From assembly GCA_020216625.1 (NCBI GenBank), contig JAIUYB010000023.1, forward strand, positions 1 to 12,171: DNA of 12,171 bases. Direction: 5' to 3'. Positions 1-6,407 of the stretch are shown piece after piece; the stretch's first letter is position 1, and each line of letters starts with the position of its first letter. The stretch comes from Desulfarculus sp. (lineage in GTDB: Bacteria; Desulfobacterota; Desulfarculia; Desulfarculales; Desulfarculaceae). The notes under the pieces are model-generated. The model ran no database searches. It was given only the letters and a program-made list of their open reading frames with translations, and was not told the origin of the DNA. The position numbers were made by a program, and so were the translations under genes.

Positions 1-14
1 TACACTCTTTCCCT
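1..14. other. Residual Illumina adapter sequence at contig end
   Basis: The first 14 bases, TACACTCTTTCCCT, are identical to an internal part of the Illumina universal adapter, which reads CTACACTCTTTCCCTACACG. The match runs to the first base of the window and is followed at once by a fold-back inverted repeat, so it is best read as untrimmed library sequence at an assembly end and not as genomic DNA. A 14-base match at an exact contig edge is unlikely by chance, but the window alone does not prove that the edge is a contig end. Confidence 0.8.
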
Positions 15-1189
15 GCCCGGCCTGCTCCTGGGTCTGCGCCAGGCGTGGCCTCGGCCCCGGCCTGGCGCAGACCCAGGAGCAGGCCGGGCAGGTCGATGCC
101 CAGGGGGCATTCCTGGCGGCAGAGGCCGCAGAGGGTGGAGGCGTGGGCCAAGTCCAGCGCCGGGGCCAGATCGTCCAACAGGCGGGAGAGCACGCTACCC
201 ATGGGACCGGGATAGACCGAGCCGTAGGCGTGCCCGCCGGCCAGACCGTAGACCGGGCAGAAGTTCAAGCAGGAGGAGCAGCGCAGGCAGAGCAGGATTT
301 CCCAGAACTTGCCTCCTAAAATGCGGGAGCGGCCGTTGTCCACCACCACCAGGTGCAACTGGCGCGGGCCGCCGGCCCCGCTCAGCCCGGCCGGCGCGGC
401 CAGCCAGGAGGAATAGGCGGACAAGGGCGCGCCGATGGCGGCCCGGGTCAACAGCTCCAGGGCCGCGCCCAGGTCGGCCAGGGTCGGCAGCGGCTTTTCC
501 AGGCCCATCACCGCGATATGCAGAGGCGGCAGGCCGGTGACATAGCGTCCGTTGCCCTCGTTGGTCACGACGGCCAACGCGCCTTCCCGACAGGCGGCGA
601 AGTTGACCCCGCTGATGCCGGCGTCGGCGGCCAGGAAGCGCTGGCGCAGGGTGGCCCGGGCCAGCTTGGTGAGGGCCTCGGGCTCGGCCGGCACCCGTTG
701 GCCCAGATTTTCGGCAAAAAGATCGGCCACCTGCCCCCGATCACGGTGCATGGCCGGCCCCAGGATGTGGAAGGGCGGCTCCCCGGCCAACTGGATGATG
801 AACTCGCCCAGGTCGGTCTCGCTGACCTCCACCCCGGCCGCCTCCAGGGCCGGGTTGAGGGCGATCTCCTCGCAGGTCATGGACTTGCCCTTGACCACCT
901 TGCGGGCTCCGGCGGCCGCCAGGATGCCCAGGACGATGCCCCGGGCCTCGGCCGCGTCGGCCGCGAAATGCACCCGCGCTCCCCGCGCTTCCAGGCGCTC
1001 GGCCAGAAGGTCCAGCCATGGCGCGGGGTTGGCCAGATAGGTCAGCTTGGCGTCGCGGACGCGGGCGCGCAGATGCTCCCAGAGGCCGGTATCGGCCAGG
1101 CCCCGGGCGTGCATCTCGCGCAGGCGGGCGGTGAAACCCTCCAGGGCCTGGCGCTGGCGGTCGTCGGCGCAGGGACGGACCCGGGCCAT
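1..1189 (-). CDS. lutB: LutB/LldF-type iron-sulfur lactate oxidation protein (3' truncated)
   Basis: This is the iron-sulfur electron-transfer subunit of the LutABC (LldEFG) L-lactate to pyruvate oxidation complex, a cytoplasmic complex with no flavin lactate oxidase domain. The frame is open from ATG 1189 to the window edge (396 codons). The N-terminal ~290 residues match the LUD domain, including the family-like stretches KVVKGKSM, GEFIIQ and TNEGNGR. Two ferredoxin-like clusters follow: C301-x2-C304-x2-C307-x3-C311-P and C354-x2-C357-x3-C361-P, with the conserved GGHAYGSVYPGP between them. The start codon overlaps the lutA stop as TGATG, which implies translational coupling. Full-length relatives have about 460-480 residues, so the C-terminal domain is missing. 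The last ~20 codons (positions 1-59) come from the fold-back/adapter artefact or its spacer and should not be trusted. A lutC partner would lie beyond the edge. The ykgF family is the same protein under another name. Confidence 0.88.
   Translation of the reverse strand, partial: MARVRPCADDRQRQALEGFTARLREMHARGLADTGLWEHLRARVRDAKLTYLANPAPWLDLLAERLEARGARVHFAADAAEARGIVLGILAAAGARKVVKGKSMTCEEIALNPALEAAGVEVSETDLGEFIIQLAGEPPFHILGPAMHRDRGQVADLFAENLGQRVPAEPEALTKLARATLRQRFLAADAGISGVNFAACREGALAVVTNEGNGRYVTGLPPLHIAVMGLEKPLPTLADLGAALELLTRAAIGAPLSAYSSWLAAPAGLSGAGGPRQLHLVVVDNGRSRILGGKFWEILLCLRCSSCLNFCPVYGLAGGHAYGSVYPGPMGSVLSRLLDDLAPALDLAHASTLCGLCRQECPLGIDLPGLLLGLRQAGAEATPGADPGAGRAGKEC
12..92. repeat. 33-bp perfect fold-back inverted repeat (probable library chimera)
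   Basis: Bases 12-44 are the exact reverse complement of bases 60-92, separated by a 15-nt spacer (45-59). The right arm lies in the conserved coding sequence of lutB, just after its second cysteine cluster. The left arm is therefore an inverted copy of coding DNA and translates to nothing LutB-like. The left arm overlaps the adapter match by three bases (12-14, CCT), as a microhomology junction would. A genuine cruciform or terminator is less likely, because the arm copies codons and has no T-tract. Confidence 0.75.
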
Positions 1190-1959
1190 CAGGCCACCTC
1201 CCCGGCCAGCAACTGAGTGATATGCACCACTTCGATGCCAAGCTTCCGCGCCCGCGCTCCAGCGGCCAGGTGCAGCAGACAGCCCACGTCGCCCACCACC
1301 AGGACCTGGGCCCCGGCCTCGGCCGCCGCGGCCAACTTGTCGCCCAGCAGCGCGCCGGAGAGCTCGTGATGGCTAACGCTGAAGGGGCCGCCGAACCCGC
1401 AGCAGCGCTCCGCCCGGGGCAGCTCCAGGCGGGGCCGGCCGGGCAGGGCGTCCAGCAAGGCGTAAGGGGCTTGGTCCTGGCCCAGGGCGCGGTGCAGGCC
1501 GCAGGAGGGATGGTAGACCCAGGGCCGGGAGGGCGCCCGGGCCCCGGCCAGGCGGGTCAGGCCCAAACGCTGATGCAGGTACTCGGTCAGCTCGTAGGTT
1601 CGCCGAACCAGCGCCTCGGCCTGAGGGGCCAGATGAGCCATTTCGGGTCGTGAGGTCAGCAATTCCGAAAGGTTGTGCCGCAAGTGGGCCACGCAGGAGC
1701 CCGAGGGCGAGACGATGTCGCCGCTTTGGGCGAAGGCCCGGACCCAGGCCGCCCCCACCCGCGCCGCCGCCCCGGTCCGGCCGGTTTTATGCAGGGCGTT
1801 GCCGCAGCAGACCTGGTCCGGGGGCAGGTCCACGGTCACGCCCTGGGCGCGCAGGACCTGCCGGGCGGCCCGGGCCACCGGGTGCAGCAGGGCGTCGGCC
1901 AGGCAGGTGACGAACAGGCTGGCGCGGGACGGTGGCGCGATGGGTTGAAGATGATTCAT
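1189..1959 (-). CDS. lutA: LutA/LldE-type CCG-domain Fe-S oxidoreductase
   Basis: This 256-residue protein is the CCG-domain subunit of the LutABC/LldEFG lactate oxidation complex, expected in the cytoplasm and electron-coupled to LutB. Both CCG domains are visible. The first has C19, C51-C52-G and SGSC with C89. The second has HPSC with C153 and C186-C187-GFGG. These cysteines are the presumed cluster ligands of the heterodisulfide-reductase-like domain. The length agrees with the ~240-residue family norm. The family homology begins near residue 13, so the first dozen residues are uncertain. ATG 1959 has no good Shine-Dalgarno sequence in front of it and lies only about two bases past the predicted transcription start, so translation may be leaderless or may start slightly downstream. 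lutA is the first gene of the lutA-lutB operon and is transcribed away from the phosphate genes. GlpC- or HdrB-like proteins also carry CCG domains, but the lutB neighbour favours LutA. Confidence 0.88.
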   Translation of the reverse strand: MNHLQPIAPPSRASLFVTCLADALLHPVARAARQVLRAQGVTVDLPPDQVCCGNALHKTGRTGAAARVGAAWVRAFAQSGDIVSPSGSCVAHLRHNLSELLTSRPEMAHLAPQAEALVRRTYELTEYLHQRLGLTRLAGARAPSRPWVYHPSCGLHRALGQDQAPYALLDALPGRPRLELPRAERCCGFGGPFSVSHHELSGALLGDKLAAAAEAGAQVLVVGDVGCLLHLAAGARARKLGIEVVHITQLLAGEVA

Positions 1960-1967
1960 GGTTGGCC

Positions 1968-1975
1968 TGTATACA
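1968..1975. promoter_or_regulatory. Palindrome TGTATACA, possible GntR-type operator
   Basis: TGTATACA is a perfect 8-bp palindrome lying on the candidate -10 of lutA, nine bases upstream of its start. FadR-subfamily GntR regulators, including lactate regulators such as LutR and LldR, commonly bind short palindromes with GT...AC half-sites, so a repressor here could block the promoter. No regulator gene is visible in the window. Short palindromes occur by chance, so this is only a lead. Confidence 0.3.
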
Positions 1976-1997
1976 CCCTGGACTGAGGGAAGGACAA
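1968..1997 (-). promoter_or_regulatory. Candidate sigma70-type promoter of lutAB
   Basis: On the minus strand, TTGTCC (1997-1992) and TATACA (1973-1968) are separated by 18 bp, each matching the -35/-10 consensus at four of six bases. Transcription would begin near 1961, almost at the lutA ATG (1959), giving a nearly leaderless message. That agrees with the lack of a ribosome binding site. It is a pattern match only. Confidence 0.35.
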
Positions 1998-2008: not shown

Positions 2009-2037
2009 TTGTAACGACCGGGTTAAAGGTATATTAC
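2009..2037 (+). promoter_or_regulatory. Candidate promoter of the DUF47-pit operon
   Basis: TTGTAA (2009-2014) and TATTAC (2032-2037) are separated by 17 bp on the plus strand. Transcription would start near 2045 and leave a leader of about 125 nt before ATG 2172. The element lies inside the Pho-box-like array, so a bound regulator would cover it. The leader contains a small C4/G4 hairpin (2143-2153) just before the ribosome binding site but no riboswitch that I recognise. Confidence 0.35.
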
Positions 2038-2061
2038 AGCGACGTGACGAATGGGTTAAAA
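2011..2061 (-). promoter_or_regulatory. Five-repeat Pho-box-like array (PhoB binding site candidate)
   Basis: Read on the minus strand, five 7-mers lie at an exact 11-bp period: TTTTAAC (2061-2055), TCGTCAC (2050-2044), CTGTAAT (2039-2033), CTTTAAC (2028-2022) and TCGTTAC (2017-2011). The enterobacterial PhoB consensus is CTGTCA(T/C) plus a 4-bp spacer, also an 11-bp period. Together the repeats match it at 24 of 35 positions, and T at position 4 and A at position 6 are invariant. The array stands between divergent lutA and the DUF47-pit operon, and phoB is encoded nearby. Its orientation points toward lutA, but it also covers the possible promoter of the plus-strand operon, which would suit PhoB repression of pit as known for orfA-pit in Sinorhizobium meliloti. 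Confidence 0.5.
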
Positions 2062-2171
2062 TTTGGCCCAAGGGTGGCGCTCGGGTAGGACGCCGCCGGG
2101 GTCAAAAATGAAAACGCCAACGAGACTGGGTCCGTCCTCCCCCCCCGGCGGGGCCGGCCTGGGAGTGGTAA

Positions 2172-2804
2172 ATGGGTTTCAGCCTTTTCCCCAAAACCGT
2201 CAAGTTCGAGGAAATGTTCATCGACCTGATCGGCAAGATCCGGGCCGCGGCCCTGGTTCTGCGCGACATGTGCAACCAGCCCGGTGACTTGCGCGAGCAG
2301 ATCATCCAGATCATGGACCTGGAGAACGAGGGCTCCAACCTTTCCCAGGACATCTCCCGCCAACTGGCCGCCACCTTCATCACCCCCATCGACCGCGAGG
2401 ACATCCACGAACTGAACAAGGCCATGATGAAGGTCCTGACCCTGATCAAGCAGGTGTCCCTGCGCATGGGCGAGTACAGCCAGGGCGACGTGCCCAAGGG
2501 CGCGCGGGCGCTGACCAGGCACCTGTTCGACATGCTGGACCAGGCGGCCATCATGATGGCCAAGCTGGGCAAGAAGCAACGCAACCTGGAGGCGGAGCTG
2601 GAGGCCATCGAGGAGGCCAAGCGGGAGGCGGATCTGGTGCTGATGGAGGCCCTGACCGCCATGTACTCCCCCCGGGAGCTGGGCTCGCAGGAGCTGTTGA
2701 CCATCATCCGCTGGTCGCGCATCTACGACCGGCTGGAGAGGGCCATCAACCGCAGCGAGACCCTGGCCGAGCTCTTGGAAGGGGTGTTCGTGAAAAATGC
2801 CTGA
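2172..2804 (+). CDS. DUF47 family PhoU-like phosphate transport regulator
   Basis: This 210-residue, almost entirely helical protein belongs to the PhoU-like DUF47 (TIGR00153) family, which is normally encoded directly upstream of pit genes. It has no signal peptide or membrane segment, so it should act in the cytoplasm, probably by modulating the adjacent transporter; the precise mechanism is not settled for the family. Supporting stretches are the N-terminal FSLFPKTVKFEEMF, the central TFITPIDREDIHEL, and the C-terminal helical segment with DRLERAINRSETLAELLEG. The length is typical. The start at 2172 is supported by GGGAG (2161-2165) six bases upstream. Its last codons overlap the pit start (ATGCCTGA, 2797-2804), so the two proteins are translationally coupled. 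The classical PhoU of Pst systems is a different subfamily, and no pst genes are seen here. Confidence 0.88.
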   Translation: MGFSLFPKTVKFEEMFIDLIGKIRAAALVLRDMCNQPGDLREQIIQIMDLENEGSNLSQDISRQLAATFITPIDREDIHELNKAMMKVLTLIKQVSLRMGEYSQGDVPKGARALTRHLFDMLDQAAIMMAKLGKKQRNLEAELEAIEEAKREADLVLMEALTAMYSPRELGSQELLTIIRWSRIYDRLERAINRSETLAELLEGVFVKNA

Positions 2805-3807
2805 GGTCTCCCTGCTGCTGATCCTCATCCTGCTGGTGGCCCTGGCCTTCGACTACACCAATGGCGCCAACGACTGCGCCAACGCCATCGCCACCGTGGT
2901 CTCCACCAAGGTCCTCTCCCCCCGCCAAGCGGTGTTGATGGCCGCGAGCCTGAACATGCTGGGAGCTTTATTGGGCACCGAGGTGGCCGAGACCATGGGC
3001 AAGGGCATCATCAACCCCGAGATGATCATGGGCTCCCAGCTCTTGGTCCTGGCGGCGGTGGTGGGCGCGGCGACCTGGAACGGACTGGCCACCCACTATG
3101 GCTGGCCCATCTCGGCCTCCCACGCCCTGATCGGGGGACTGATTGGGGCGGGCCTGACCTTCGGTGGCCCGGAAACCCTGAATTTCAGCTCCATCGCGGC
3201 CAAGGTGCTGGTCCCACTGGTCCTGTCGCCCATCTTCGGCTTTTTGGGGGGGTACCTCCTGTTGGTGGGCCTGGCCTGGGCTTTCCGCGACAGCGCCTGG
3301 GAAAAGTCCAACCACCTGTTCCGCAAGCTGCAATTGGTCTCCTCCGGGGCCATGGCCCTGAGCCATGGCATGAACGACGCCCAGAAGACCATGGGCATCA
3401 TCACCCTGGCGCTTTTCATCTCCCACTGGATACCGGCCATGGTGGTGCCGTTGTGGGTCAAGCTGCTCTGCGCGATGGTGATGGGCCTGGGCACCGCGGT
3501 GGGCGGGTGGAAGGTCATCCAGACCATGGGGCACAACATCTTCAAATTGGAGCCTTTCCACGGCTTCGCGGCCGAGACCTCGGCCGCCCTGGTCATCGCC
3601 GGCTCCTCCCATTTCGGCGCGCCCATCAGCACCACCCACATCATCTCCACCTCCATCATGGGGGTGGGCGCCTCCAAGCGCTTCAGCGCGGTGCGTTGGC
3701 GGGTGGCCGGCAACCTGGTCATCGCCTGGGTGCTAACGATTCCAGCCTCCGCCGCCATGGCGGCGGTGGCCTTTTGGGCGCTGTCCCTGCTGGGGTTGGG
3801 CGGTTGA
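2797..3807 (+). CDS. pit: PiT family inorganic phosphate permease
   Basis: This 336-residue inner-membrane protein is a member of the PHO4/PiT family, which takes up phosphate (in bacteria often as a metal-phosphate complex) using a cation gradient. The diagnostic inverted-repeat signatures are present: GANDCANA at residues 23-30 after the first membrane segment, and HGMNDAQKTMG from residue 190. WPISASHALIGG and PISTTHIISTSIMG, one in each half, are the related pore motifs. About ten hydrophobic segments span the chain. The length is that of the short, 330-340-residue bacterial/archaeal branch and not the ~500-residue E. coli PitA. The ATG overlaps the preceding DUF47 gene by 8 bp, with GGAAGGGG upstream as the likely ribosome binding site. 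Sulfate permeases of the same superfamily are a remote alternative; the DUF47 and PhoBR neighbours favour phosphate. Confidence 0.93.
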   Translation: MPEVSLLLILILLVALAFDYTNGANDCANAIATVVSTKVLSPRQAVLMAASLNMLGALLGTEVAETMGKGIINPEMIMGSQLLVLAAVVGAATWNGLATHYGWPISASHALIGGLIGAGLTFGGPETLNFSSIAAKVLVPLVLSPIFGFLGGYLLLVGLAWAFRDSAWEKSNHLFRKLQLVSSGAMALSHGMNDAQKTMGIITLALFISHWIPAMVVPLWVKLLCAMVMGLGTAVGGWKVIQTMGHNIFKLEPFHGFAAETSAALVIAGSSHFGAPISTTHIISTSIMGVGASKRFSAVRWRVAGNLVIAWVLTIPASAAMAAVAFWALSLLGLGG

Positions 3808-3824
3808 GACCGACAGGAGAAGCG

Positions 3825-3842
3825 TTGTAACCAAAATGCAAC
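3825..3842 (+). promoter_or_regulatory. Weak two-repeat Pho-box-like site upstream of phoB
   Basis: TTGTAAC (3825-3831) and ATGCAAC (3836-3842) are spaced 11 bp apart, and the octamer GTTGTAAC is shared with the pit upstream region (2008-2015). Autoregulation of phoB by PhoB is common, but only two imperfect units are present and they lie about 100 bp from the start codon. The rest of the 132-bp pit-phoB gap shows a possible -10, TAAGAT (3897-3902), without a convincing -35, and no terminator. Confidence 0.22.
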
Positions 3843-3939
3843 ACAACTCCGGGTGTAAACCGCTGGTTTCGCCTGGGAAAGCCCGCCCGCTCCGGTTAAG
3901 ATTCCGCCCAAAGGCTCCGGCCAAGCGAGGAGAGACCAG

Positions 3940-4629
3940 ATGGGCAAACCGACGGTGTTGGTGGTGGAGGACGAGCGCGATATTCAGGACTTGGTGGAGT
4001 TCAACCTGCGCCAATCCGGATACCGCGTGCTCAAGGCCGGGGATGGGCTGGAGGGACTGCGCCTGGCCCAGTCCGAGAAGCCGGACTTGGTGGTGCTGGA
4101 CCTGATGCTGCCGGGCCTGGACGGCAAGGAGGTCTGCCGCCGCCTGAAACAGGGCGAGTCCACCCGGGCCATCCCCATCCTGATGCTCACCGCCCTGGCC
4201 GAGGAGACCGACCGCATCATCGGCTTCGAGATCGGCGCCGACGACTACCTGACCAAACCTTTCAGCCCCCGCGAACTCTCGCTGCGCATCCAGGCCATTC
4301 TGCGCCGCAGCGCCGAGCCGGAGGCGGGCGGCGGCCATTTGCGAATGGACGGCTTGGTCATCGACCCCGAGCGGCACTTGGTGGAGGTCGAGGGCGAGGT
4401 GGTGGACCTGACCGCCACCGAGTTTCGCCTCCTGCACCATCTAGCCAGCCACGCCGGCAAGGTCCAGACCCGCGAGGTGCTGCTGGAGCGGGTCTGGGGC
4501 TACGCCTACGAGGGTTACGCCCGCACCGTGGACACCCATGTCCGCCGCTTGCGTAAAAAGCTGGGCAAGCTCAGCGAGGCCATCGAGACCATCCGCGGCA
4601 TCGGTTACCGGTACCGGAGCGGCGAATGA
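3940..4629 (+). CDS. phoB: PhoB-type OmpR-family response regulator
   Basis: This 229-residue transcription factor has an N-terminal receiver and a C-terminal OmpR/PhoB winged helix. In the receiver, acidic residues E10 and D11, phosphoacceptor D54 (in VVLDLMLPGLDG), T84 and K106 (in YLTKPFSP) are all in place. The winged helix occupies roughly residues 130-229 and ends in DTHVRRLRKKLG and IRGIGYRY, typical of PhoB/PhoP. GAGGAG (3927-3932), seven bases before the ATG, is a strong ribosome binding site that fixes the start. The gene overlaps phoR by ATGA and lies 132 bp downstream of pit, which supports a phosphate-responsive role over other OmpR-family members. It would activate or repress Pho-box promoters when phosphorylated by PhoR in low phosphate. 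Confidence 0.88.
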   Translation: MGKPTVLVVEDERDIQDLVEFNLRQSGYRVLKAGDGLEGLRLAQSEKPDLVVLDLMLPGLDGKEVCRRLKQGESTRAIPILMLTALAEETDRIIGFEIGADDYLTKPFSPRELSLRIQAILRRSAEPEAGGGHLRMDGLVIDPERHLVEVEGEVVDLTATEFRLLHHLASHAGKVQTREVLLERVWGYAYEGYARTVDTHVRRLRKKLGKLSEAIETIRGIGYRYRSGE

Positions 4630-6407
4630 AGCCACGGCTGTCCTTCCAGACCCGGGTGCTCATTGGCGGCCTGGCGGTGGTGCTCTGCACCCTCCTGTTC
4701 GTGGCCGTGCTTCTGGAGCGCTCCCTGGGCGAACGCATTCTCTCCCAGGTTCAAGGCGGCCTGGAAAAGCAGCTCACCCTGGCCGTGGACTTGGTGTCCG
4801 ACCGCTGGCGGCCCAGCCAGGGCCTGGACGCCAGCGAGAACCTGGCCGAGGATCTGGGGCGCAAGCTGGGCCTGCGCATCACCTTGATCACCCCCCAGGG
4901 CCTGGTGGTGGGCGATTCAGAGGTGGGCCGGGCCGACTTGGAGCGCCTGGAAAACCATGCCCGGCGGCCGGAGGTCGTGGCCGCCATGACTTCCGGCCAG
5001 GGCAGCAGCATCCGCTACAGCTCCACTCTGGGGGTGGACCTGCTCTACGTGGCCGGCCTGGTGGGCGATCCCAGTCGACCCGGCTTGGTGGTGCGTCTGG
5101 CCCTGCCGCTTTCCGAGCTTAACCGCACCTTGACTGGCGTGCGCCGCCTGGTGCTGGGAGCCATGCTGCTGGGGGTGCTGTTGTCGGTGGGGGTGGCCTT
5201 CTTCATGGCCCGGGGCATCAGCCGGCCATTGAAGGACCTGACCCGCACCGCCCAGATCATCGCCTCCGGCGACCTCAGCCCCCGGGTGCGGCGCTATCCT
5301 CGCCATGAGGTGGGTGATCTGGGCCGGGCCTTCGACCGCATGGCCGACACCCTCCAGCAGAAGATCGAGGACATCACCGCCGCCCATGACCGCCAGGATG
5401 GCATCCTGAGCGCCATGATGGAGGGGGTGATGCTGGTGGACCCCGAGGGCCGCATCCTGTTGGTAAACCAGGCCCTGATGCGCCTGTTGGACCTGACCCG
5501 CGATCCAGTGGGGCTGACCTCCTCGGAGATGGTGCGCAATCCCGACCTGCAAGACGCGGTGGGCGCTGTGTTGGCCGGCCAGCCCTACCAGTCGCGCGAG
5601 ATCCGCACCTTGGGTTCCAATCCCCGCCACCTGGAGGTCCACGTGGCCCGCCTGGCCGGGGACGGCCCCCAGGCCGGCGGCGCGGTGGCGGTGTTCCACG
5701 ACATCAGCGAGCGCAAGCGGGTGGAGAAGATGCGTCGGGACTTCGTGGCCAACGTCAGCCACGAACTACGCACCCCGCTGACCGCCATTCGGGGCTCGGC
5801 CGAGACCCTGTTGGACGGGGCCCTGGAGAGCCCGCATTACGCCAAGCACTTCGTGGAGATGATCGAGCGACACACCCAGCGCCTGCAACGCCTGGTGGAA
5901 GATCTCCTGGACCTGGCGCGGCTGGAAAGCGGCCAGGCCCCGCCCAAAAAGGACGCGGTGGACGCGGCCGAGCTGGCCGACGCGGTGCTGGCCACCTTCA
6001 GCGACCTGGCCGCGGAAAAGGGCCTGGAGCTGACCCGCAGCCTGCCCCGGGAGGGACTCAAGCTCTGGGGCGACCGCCGTCAACTGGAGCAGGCGGTGCT
6101 GAACCTGATGGACAACGCCATCAAATACACCCAGCCGGGAGGCAAGGTCGGCCTAAGCTTCAGGGCTGGAGAGGGCGGGAGCGTGATCGCGGTCAGCGAC
6201 ACCGGCCCGGGCATCGACCCCCAGCACCTGCCCCGGCTCTTCGAACGCTTCTACCGGGTGGACAAGGACCGCTCCCGCGAGATGGGCGGCACCGGCCTGG
6301 GCCTGGCCATCGTCAAGCACATCGTCCAGGCCCATGGCGGCTCGCTGGAGGTGGACAGCCAGCCTGGGCGGGGCAGCGAATTTCGCCTGATCATTCCCGC
6401 CGCCTGA
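4626..6407 (+). CDS. phoR: PhoR-type membrane sensor histidine kinase
   Basis: This 593-residue kinase has, in order: membrane helix ~11-31, an extracytoplasmic sensor ~32-172, membrane helix ~175-195, HAMP ~196-249, PAS ~255-365, HisKA with H379 in NVSHELRTPL, and a HATPase domain. The ATPase shows an N-box with N493 and N497, G1 box DTGPG at 525-529 and G2 box GGTGLGL at 554-560. The large periplasmic sensor plus PAS is the PhoR layout of Firmicutes and Desulfobacterota and is longer than E. coli PhoR (~430 residues, little periplasmic domain). The start overlaps the phoB stop (ATGA at 4626-4629), so stoichiometric translation is likely. No terminator for this strand follows; the hairpin at 6434-6465 has its T-tract on the other strand. 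A different stimulus is possible, since PhoR, PnpS and WalK-like kinases share this layout; the phosphate neighbours favour PhoR. Confidence 0.87.
   Translation: MKPRLSFQTRVLIGGLAVVLCTLLFVAVLLERSLGERILSQVQGGLEKQLTLAVDLVSDRWRPSQGLDASENLAEDLGRKLGLRITLITPQGLVVGDSEVGRADLERLENHARRPEVVAAMTSGQGSSIRYSSTLGVDLLYVAGLVGDPSRPGLVVRLALPLSELNRTLTGVRRLVLGAMLLGVLLSVGVAFFMARGISRPLKDLTRTAQIIASGDLSPRVRRYPRHEVGDLGRAFDRMADTLQQKIEDITAAHDRQDGILSAMMEGVMLVDPEGRILLVNQALMRLLDLTRDPVGLTSSEMVRNPDLQDAVGAVLAGQPYQSREIRTLGSNPRHLEVHVARLAGDGPQAGGAVAVFHDISERKRVEKMRRDFVANVSHELRTPLTAIRGSAETLLDGALESPHYAKHFVEMIERHTQRLQRLVEDLLDLARLESGQAPPKKDAVDAAELADAVLATFSDLAAEKGLELTRSLPREGLKLWGDRRQLEQAVLNLMDNAIKYTQPGGKVGLSFRAGEGGSVIAVSDTGPGIDPQHLPRLFERFYRVDKDRSREMGGTGLGLAIVKHIVQAHGGSLEVDSQPGRGSEFRLIIPAA

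What the first reader, a model, noticed from the sequence alone, without database searches (positions are those of the whole stretch)
2011..2061. Five phased 11-bp Pho-box-like repeats between divergent lut and pit operons
Five 7-mers at exact 11-bp spacing match the PhoB site architecture. They sit beside a PhoB gene and cover the possible pit promoter. Their orientation points to lutA, which would link lactate oxidation to phosphate status, while the overlap suits PhoB repression of the low-affinity Pit transporter. A five-unit array is longer than the usual two-unit box.
Basis: partly seen in the sequence, partly recalled or inferred. Interest (0 to 1): 0.72.

Follow-up and report, generated by a model that had tools for sequence, protein, structure and literature searches.

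The report
PhoB-type operator array at phosphate transporter
Five evenly spaced short DNA repeats upstream of a phosphate-transporter gene look like a landing site for the bacterium's phosphate-starvation regulator, probably controlling the transporter rather than the neighbouring lactate genes; this is a known kind of switch.

Summary
In detail: five 7-mers at exact 11-bp spacing lie on the minus strand at 2060-2010. A motif learned from 18 pstS promoters of the same family, rebuilt without the window's genome and its nearest relative, scores the array above 5000 of 5000 dinucleotide shuffles. It is very probably a PhoB operator. The lactate link is not supported: of six close lutA loci without pit next door, one has a site, whereas eight of nine close DUF47-pit loci do. 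Fifteen of 18 pstS boxes lie exactly 9 nt before TANNNT; the array does not, towards lutA. The one promoter-like site that a simple scan lists (2033-2062) lies inside the array and faces pit. In three relatives lutA lies directly opposite phoBR, so DUF47-pit probably arrived later. Best reading: PhoB~P binds the array and probably lowers DUF47-pit transcription under phosphate limitation; activation remains possible. Starvation-repressed pit (Sinorhizobium), PhoP-activated pitH2 with a long array (Streptomyces) and PhoB binding at a lactate operon (Desulfovibrio) are published. New member of a known kind.

The parts
2010..2060 (-). Five-unit, 11-bp-phased PhoB-type operator array
   Evidence: 31.4 bits for five units, 0 of 5000 shuffles; spacing controls negative; 2 of the 33 genome matches lie here
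2032..2049 (-). Best Pho-box dimer CGTCACGTCGCTGTAATA
   Evidence: 22.6 bits with a pstS-trained matrix that excludes G000 and G005
2033..2062 (+). Predicted DUF47-pit promoter ATTACA-18-TAAAAT, inside the array
   Evidence: the only site listed in 1940-2200; shuffles give 0.2 (sd 0.4), so weak alone
1968..1997 (-). Possible lutA promoter TTGTCC-18-TATACA, ending 8 nt before the lutA ATG
   Evidence: by eye; not listed by the scan; similar hexamers 6-8 nt before lutA in G001, G002, G004, G009 (by eye)
1189..1959 (-). lutA-like (Fe-S)-binding protein
   Evidence: CCG cysteine-rich domain; adjacent open lutB-like frame at 1-1192
2172..2804 (+). DUF47 / PhoU_div (Pit accessory protein type)
   Evidence: PF01865, 45 bits, over cut-off
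2797..3807 (+). pit, PHO4-family phosphate transporter
   Evidence: PF01384, E 6e-96
3826..3843 (+). Second Pho-box-like dimer TGTAACCAAAATGCAACA, in front of phoB
   Evidence: 18.3 bits, 0 of 5000 shuffles of 3808-3939; no TANNNT at 9 nt
3940..4629 (+). phoB-like OmpR-family response regulator
   Evidence: TIGR02154 is the best model, 254.1 bits, below its cut-off of 296.2; next best match in the held genome is 44% identical
4626..6407 (+). phoR-like histidine kinase
   Evidence: TIGR02966 332.2 bits (cut-off 334.2), PnpS 391.2 (cut-off 400)

Best explanation
The array is a PhoB operator that belongs to the DUF47-pit transcription unit. Under phosphate limitation phosphorylated PhoB binds the five 11-bp units head to tail. 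Because the units cover the predicted -35 and -10 of the DUF47-pit promoter, binding most likely excludes RNA polymerase and turns the low-affinity transporter down, while PhoB turns up pst and perhaps, through the second box at 3826-3843, its own phoBR. Shown by computation: the array, its match to the lineage's pstS boxes, and its association with close DUF47-pit loci. Inferred: PhoB binding, the sign of regulation, the promoter. Any effect on lutA would be a by-product of the shared gap.
For: A motif found from random starts in 18 family pstS upstream regions, best site 19.1-25.5 bits in each. The window array is reached by 0 of 5000 shuffles. The own genome has exact pattern matches before pstS and a pstC-like gene, 2 of 4 exact matches in all. 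Eight of nine distinct close DUF47-pit loci carry a site at 1% or better. The one listed promoter in the gap lies under the array. In G003 the box lies between TTGCAA and TAGTCT, 17 bp apart, where it would block polymerase (by eye, box). The activating geometry is absent at all eight pit-linked sites in their own reading direction (seven scripted, L168 read).
Against: In G001, G002 and G004 the box lies just upstream of the likely pit core promoter, not over it (by eye), which fits activation as well. Streptomyces pitH2 is activated by PhoP through a similar array (PMC7866108, passages). PhoB and PhoR fall below their NCBIfam cut-offs. The association does not extend to more distant loci: 0 of 21, 0 of 30 and 0 of 11 (best 11 of 1000) at 1%; the line between close and distant (63% pit identity) was drawn after seeing the scores. 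The promoter under the array is weak evidence. The boxes before phoB and the pstC-like gene also lack the 9-nt geometry, so its absence does not exclude activation. No binding or expression data were available.
Confidence: 0.58

Rival explanations
1. PhoB~P binds the array and activates DUF47-pit (and perhaps read-through into phoBR) under phosphate limitation, as PhoP does at Streptomyces pitH2.
For: Array of four core and two ancillary units and PhoP-dependent activation at S. coelicolor pitH2 (PMC7866108, passages). In G001, G002 and G004 the box is immediately upstream of the likely pit promoter (by eye).
Against: The site reads away from pit in six of eight close loci with a site; none of the eight has the box-N9-TANNNT spacing of 15 of 18 pstS boxes in its reading direction; the array overlaps the predicted -35/-10.
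Confidence: 0.24
2. The array mainly regulates lutBA, coupling lactate oxidation to phosphate, as considered for the lactate operon of Desulfovibrio vulgaris.
For: Array orientation is that of lutA and ends 12 nt before the possible lutA -35 (by eye). G009 has a two-unit site in its lutA-phoB gap (13.1 bits, 2 of 1000). PhoB binds a site containing GTTAC-N6-GTTAC upstream of the D. vulgaris lactate operon by EMSA (PMC6456213).
Against: Five of six close lutA loci without pit have no site. No activating geometry. The D. [quoted passage not shown] vulgaris (PMC6456213).
Confidence: 0.1
3. The repeats are bound by another OmpR-family regulator with a GTTAA/GTAAC-type direct repeat, not by PhoB.
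For: OmpR-family sites often share 10-11-bp direct repeats (recalled). The held genome has two other regulators with matches of 40-44% identity along most of PhoB.
Against: The same motif stands before pstS in 18 family genomes and before a pstC-like gene and phoB here.
Confidence: 0.06
4. The array is a chance or relic pattern without present function.
For: Two of the five units (TTTAACC) are weak matches of 4.5 bits each.
Against: 0 of 5000 shuffles for 3, 4 and 5 units; recurrence at other close DUF47-pit loci.
Confidence: 0.02

Closest known systems
Sinorhizobium meliloti orfA-pit, repressed under phosphate starvation
   Same: Accessory-protein gene followed by pit; Pho box just upstream of the operon's start; regulated opposite to Pst (PMC3131613 and PMC8829014, passages only; that the repression acts through PhoB is recalled)
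   Different: Here a five-unit array in a divergent gap next to lutA, in a gene order that runs on to phoBR; no expression data
Streptomyces coelicolor pitH2 PHO box
   Same: Long array of 11-nt direct-repeat units (four core and two ancillary) upstream of a pit gene (PMC7866108, passages)
   Different: There PhoP activates; the accessory gene pap goes with pitH1, not pitH2; consensus differs
Desulfovibrio vulgaris PhoB box at the lactate operon DVU3025-3033
   Same: Core (c/t)GT(n)AC repeat; PhoB bound the site by EMSA next to lactate genes (PMC3333781 and PMC6456213, passages)
   Different: One two-unit site, different operon and promoter type; here sites track pit rather than lut
E. coli pstS-type activating Pho box (CTGTCAT-N4-CTGTCAT)
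   Same: 7-mers with 4-bp spacers, head to tail (PMC4415409, passages)
   Different: Different core; the window array lacks the fixed distance to a -10 hexamer that this family's pstS boxes show

Membership tests
PHO box (PhoB/PhoP operator) | Direct repeats with 11-bp period | tested here: met
   only 11 bp scores positive among 7-15 bp for five units
PHO box (PhoB/PhoP operator) | Sequence agrees with boxes at pst promoters of the same lineage | tested here: met
   matrix from 16 pstS boxes, own genome and G005 excluded; 0 of 5000
PHO box (PhoB/PhoP operator) | A PhoB-type regulator in the genome | tested here: inconclusive
   best model TIGR02154, but 254.1 bits is under the 296.2 cut-off; followed by a PhoR-like kinase also just under cut-off
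PHO box (PhoB/PhoP operator) | Bound by phosphorylated PhoB | not testable with these tools
   needs footprint or EMSA
Activating Pho promoter of this family's pstS type | Box followed after 9 nt by TANNNT | tested here: not met
   15 of 18 pstS boxes have it; the array (lutA strand) does not, nor do the boxes before phoB and the pstC-like gene
PhoB-repressed pit operon (S. meliloti type) | Accessory-protein gene plus pit as one unit | tested here: met
   DUF47 and pit overlap by 8 nt
PhoB-repressed pit operon (S. meliloti type) | Operator overlaps the promoter or transcript start | tested here: inconclusive
   predicted promoter only; in three relatives the box is upstream of the likely promoter (by eye)
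PhoB-repressed pit operon (S. meliloti type) | Transcript falls under phosphate limitation | not testable with these tools
   no expression data
PhoB control of lactate genes (D. vulgaris type) | Box linked to the lactate genes across relatives | tested here: not met
   1 of 6 close lutA loci without adjacent pit has a site

The most novel reading that the evidence does not exclude
One PhoB array serves both sides of the gap: it shuts the low-affinity phosphate transporter and, from the far side, modulates a leaderless lutBA promoter, so that insertion of DUF47-pit between lutA and phoBR newly wired lactate oxidation to phosphate status in this lineage.
Probability: 0.1. Interest if true: 0.5.

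Novelty: new member of a known kind. Interest (0 to 1): 0.27.

Why it matters
It gives a calibrated Pho-box matrix and a simple activation grammar at pstS (box, 9 nt, TANNNT) for a Desulfarculus-related lineage; one paper search for Desulfarculus with PhoB listed a single paper with one mention of each. It also suggests how a transporter operon can bring its own PhoB operator into a new neighbourhood, which warns against assigning a divergent operator to a gene by repeat orientation alone.

Tried and rejected
A lutA-centred reading was tested and set aside (1 of 6; no activating geometry). A phylum-wide association of DUF47 with Pho boxes was tested and not found: 0 of 30 loci at 2% (30 loci out of 170 genomes with a match) and 0 of 11 at 1% (best G080, 11 of 1000; for some of these the DUF47 start was only approximate), though the family matrix may not fit other lineages. 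The pit check inside the script printed no positive for any locus and was not used. Among more distant pit loci, 0 of 21 reached 1%. Promoters of phoB in relatives are mixed: G006 15.3 bits, reading away from phoB (3 of 1000); G008 and G012 6.7 bits (73 and 74 of 1000); G009 13.1 bits, reading towards lutA (2 of 1000); G010, G001 and G002 none. The other phoB loci printed were not scored. The first pattern search used a 10-bp period by mistake, found 7 matches against 9 in its control, and was replaced. The first related-loci scan, with DUF47, found nothing; the second, with pit, worked. No structure prediction was run.

Rows dropped before counts: the motif search used 18 of the 51 genomes with a pstS match, namely the window's family; G019 of that family was left out because its match sits at a contig end, G013 had no match, and only the best match per genome was used. 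That leaves 25: four close (L165-L168, pit identity 63-65%) and 21 below that. The line at 63% was drawn after seeing the scores; the next ones down (60, 59 and 59%: L172, L174, L178) have no site. Shuffle fractions are not corrected for the number of regions.

Full report
What is there. The window is a whole 12,171-base contig of a 70%-complete genome. Genes around the finding: lutB-like and lutA-like on the minus strand (lutA 1189-1959), then on the plus strand DUF47 (2172-2804), pit (2797-3807), a phoB-like regulator (3940-4629) and a phoR-like kinase (4626-6407). The best named match of the pit gene, at 67% identity, lies in a Desulfarculus sp. genome; Desulfarculus belongs to Thermodesulfobacteriota.

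The observation. Five 7-mers on the minus strand, 2060 to 2010, at exact 11-bp steps. To score them without circularity I took upstream regions of pstS from 18 genomes of the same family (18 of 51 genomes with a match) and ran an expectation-maximisation search for an 18-base motif from 250 random starts. The best motif is CGTaACC.cgccGTaACA; its best site scores 19.1-25.5 bits in each of the 18 and reads in the direction of pstS in 17. A matrix from 16 of these (the window's genome and its nearest relative G005 left out) gives the window gap 22.6 bits for the best dimer and 31.4 bits for five units; 0 of 5000 dinucleotide shuffles reach either, and five units at any other spacing from 7 to 15 bp score -19.1 or lower. 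A sixth unit on either side lowers the score.

What binds it. The motif pattern stands as exact matches before pstS and a pstC-like gene in this genome, two of the four exact matches in all, and with one mismatch before phoB at 3826-3843 (18.3 bits, 0 of 5000 shuffles). At one mismatch the genome has 33 matches against 21 for the control pattern, so single matches mean little. D. vulgaris PhoB has a (c/t)GT(n)AC repeat (PMC3333781, passages), and its site at the lactate operon contains GTTAC-N6-GTTAC (PMC6456213, passages), the same core. PhoB is therefore the likely ligand. Caveat: both regulator genes score below their NCBIfam cut-offs.

Which gene it serves. In G001, G002 and G009 lutA lies directly opposite phoBR; in G004 the first codons of a phoB-like frame are visible opposite lutA at the contig end (by eye). 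DUF47-pit of G001-G004 sits elsewhere, and DUF47 had no match in the other family genomes searched. So in the window DUF47-pit probably arrived between lutA and phoBR. Scored with the same matrix (27 regions), all four same-genus DUF47-pit loci outside the window carry a site (G001 0, G002 0, G004 2, G003 3 of 1000 shuffles), while of six close lutA loci without pit (G001, G002, G003, G004, G009, G013) only G009 does (2 of 1000). Adding four further close pit loci (63-65% identity) gives sites in L165 (0 of 500), L167 (0 of 500) and L168 (5 of 500), not in L166 (365 of 500), whose DUF47 follows an upstream kinase-like frame by 11 nt and so has little room for a promoter. In total eight of nine distinct close DUF47-pit loci have a site. 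G001, G002 and G004 share one arrangement, so they are not independent, and the limit of 63% was drawn after seeing the scores. The association does not reach more distant loci (0 of 21; 0 of 30; 0 of 11; all at 1%).

Direction. The sites read away from pit in the window, G001, G002, G004, L167 and L168, and towards it in G003 and L165. Orientation therefore does not mark the target. In pstS, 15 of 18 boxes are followed after exactly 9 nt by TANNNT. The window array does not have this towards lutA, and none of the pit-linked sites has it in its own reading direction (for seven; L168 read). The boxes before phoB and the pstC-like gene lack it too, so its absence does not prove that a box cannot activate. 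Possible lutA promoters (TTG(T/C)xx, 17-18 bp, then a hexamer ending 6-8 nt before ATG) are visible by eye in the window, G001, G002, G004 and G009, with or without Pho boxes; the promoter scan did not list the one in the window.

Mechanism. The one sigma-70-like site listed in 1940-2200, ATTACA-18-TAAAAT at 2033-2062 on the plus strand (shuffles: mean 0.2, sd 0.4), lies inside the array. In G003 the box fills the 17-bp spacer between TTGCAA and TAGTCT (by eye). Both fit occlusion of the pit promoter. Against this, in G001, G002 and G004 the box lies just upstream of the likely pit promoter (by eye). I put repression at a little over half and activation at about a quarter.

Known precedents. 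orfA-pit of S. meliloti is repressed under phosphate starvation and its Pho box lies just upstream of the gene start (PMC3131613, PMC8829014; passages). S. coelicolor pitH2 is activated by PhoP through four core and two ancillary 11-nt units (PMC7866108; passages). PhoB binds upstream of the D. vulgaris lactate operon, with no reliable effect on expression obtained (PMC6456213, passages). Each element of the finding has thus been seen before; I saw no report of the combination in the listings. A search for Pho box, PhoB and Geobacter gave no paper, one for PhoB, Desulfovibrio, phosphate and binding site motif two, and one for Desulfarculus and PhoB a single paper, seen only in the listing.

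Verdict. Real, functional-looking and well calibrated, but a new member of a known kind. The lactate-phosphate link remains possible and is the only part that would surprise a specialist.

Noticed in passing
window 3826-3843: A second Pho-box-like dimer in front of phoB, in its direction (18.3 bits, 0 of 5000 shuffles): possible autoregulation, though no TANNNT follows at 9 nt.
   Followed up: partly
window 1-92: The contig starts with letters that resemble an Illumina adapter (recalled) followed by a perfect 33-nt inverted repeat with 15 nt between the arms: probably an assembly artefact.
   Followed up: partly
window 1959-1997: A lutA -10-like hexamer ends 6-8 nt before the start codon here and in G001, G002, G004 and G009 (by eye), which suggests a conserved leaderless lutA transcript.
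   Followed up: no
L246 1501-1517: An exact Pho-box pattern upstream of a secreted-protein-like frame that is followed by an ammonium-transporter-like frame (names recalled from the sequence), a possible nitrogen-phosphate link.
   Followed up: no
L005, L006, L007, upstream of DUF47: The region opposite DUF47 in G004, G002 and G001 has tandem GTATTAC or TATTAC repeats 10 bp apart (by eye), perhaps an operator of the divergent small gene seen in G002.
   Followed up: no
L123, L124, L125: G001, G004 and G002 carry a second phoB-like gene divergent from pstS (61-64% identical to the window's), not found in the held part of the window's genome.
   Followed up: no
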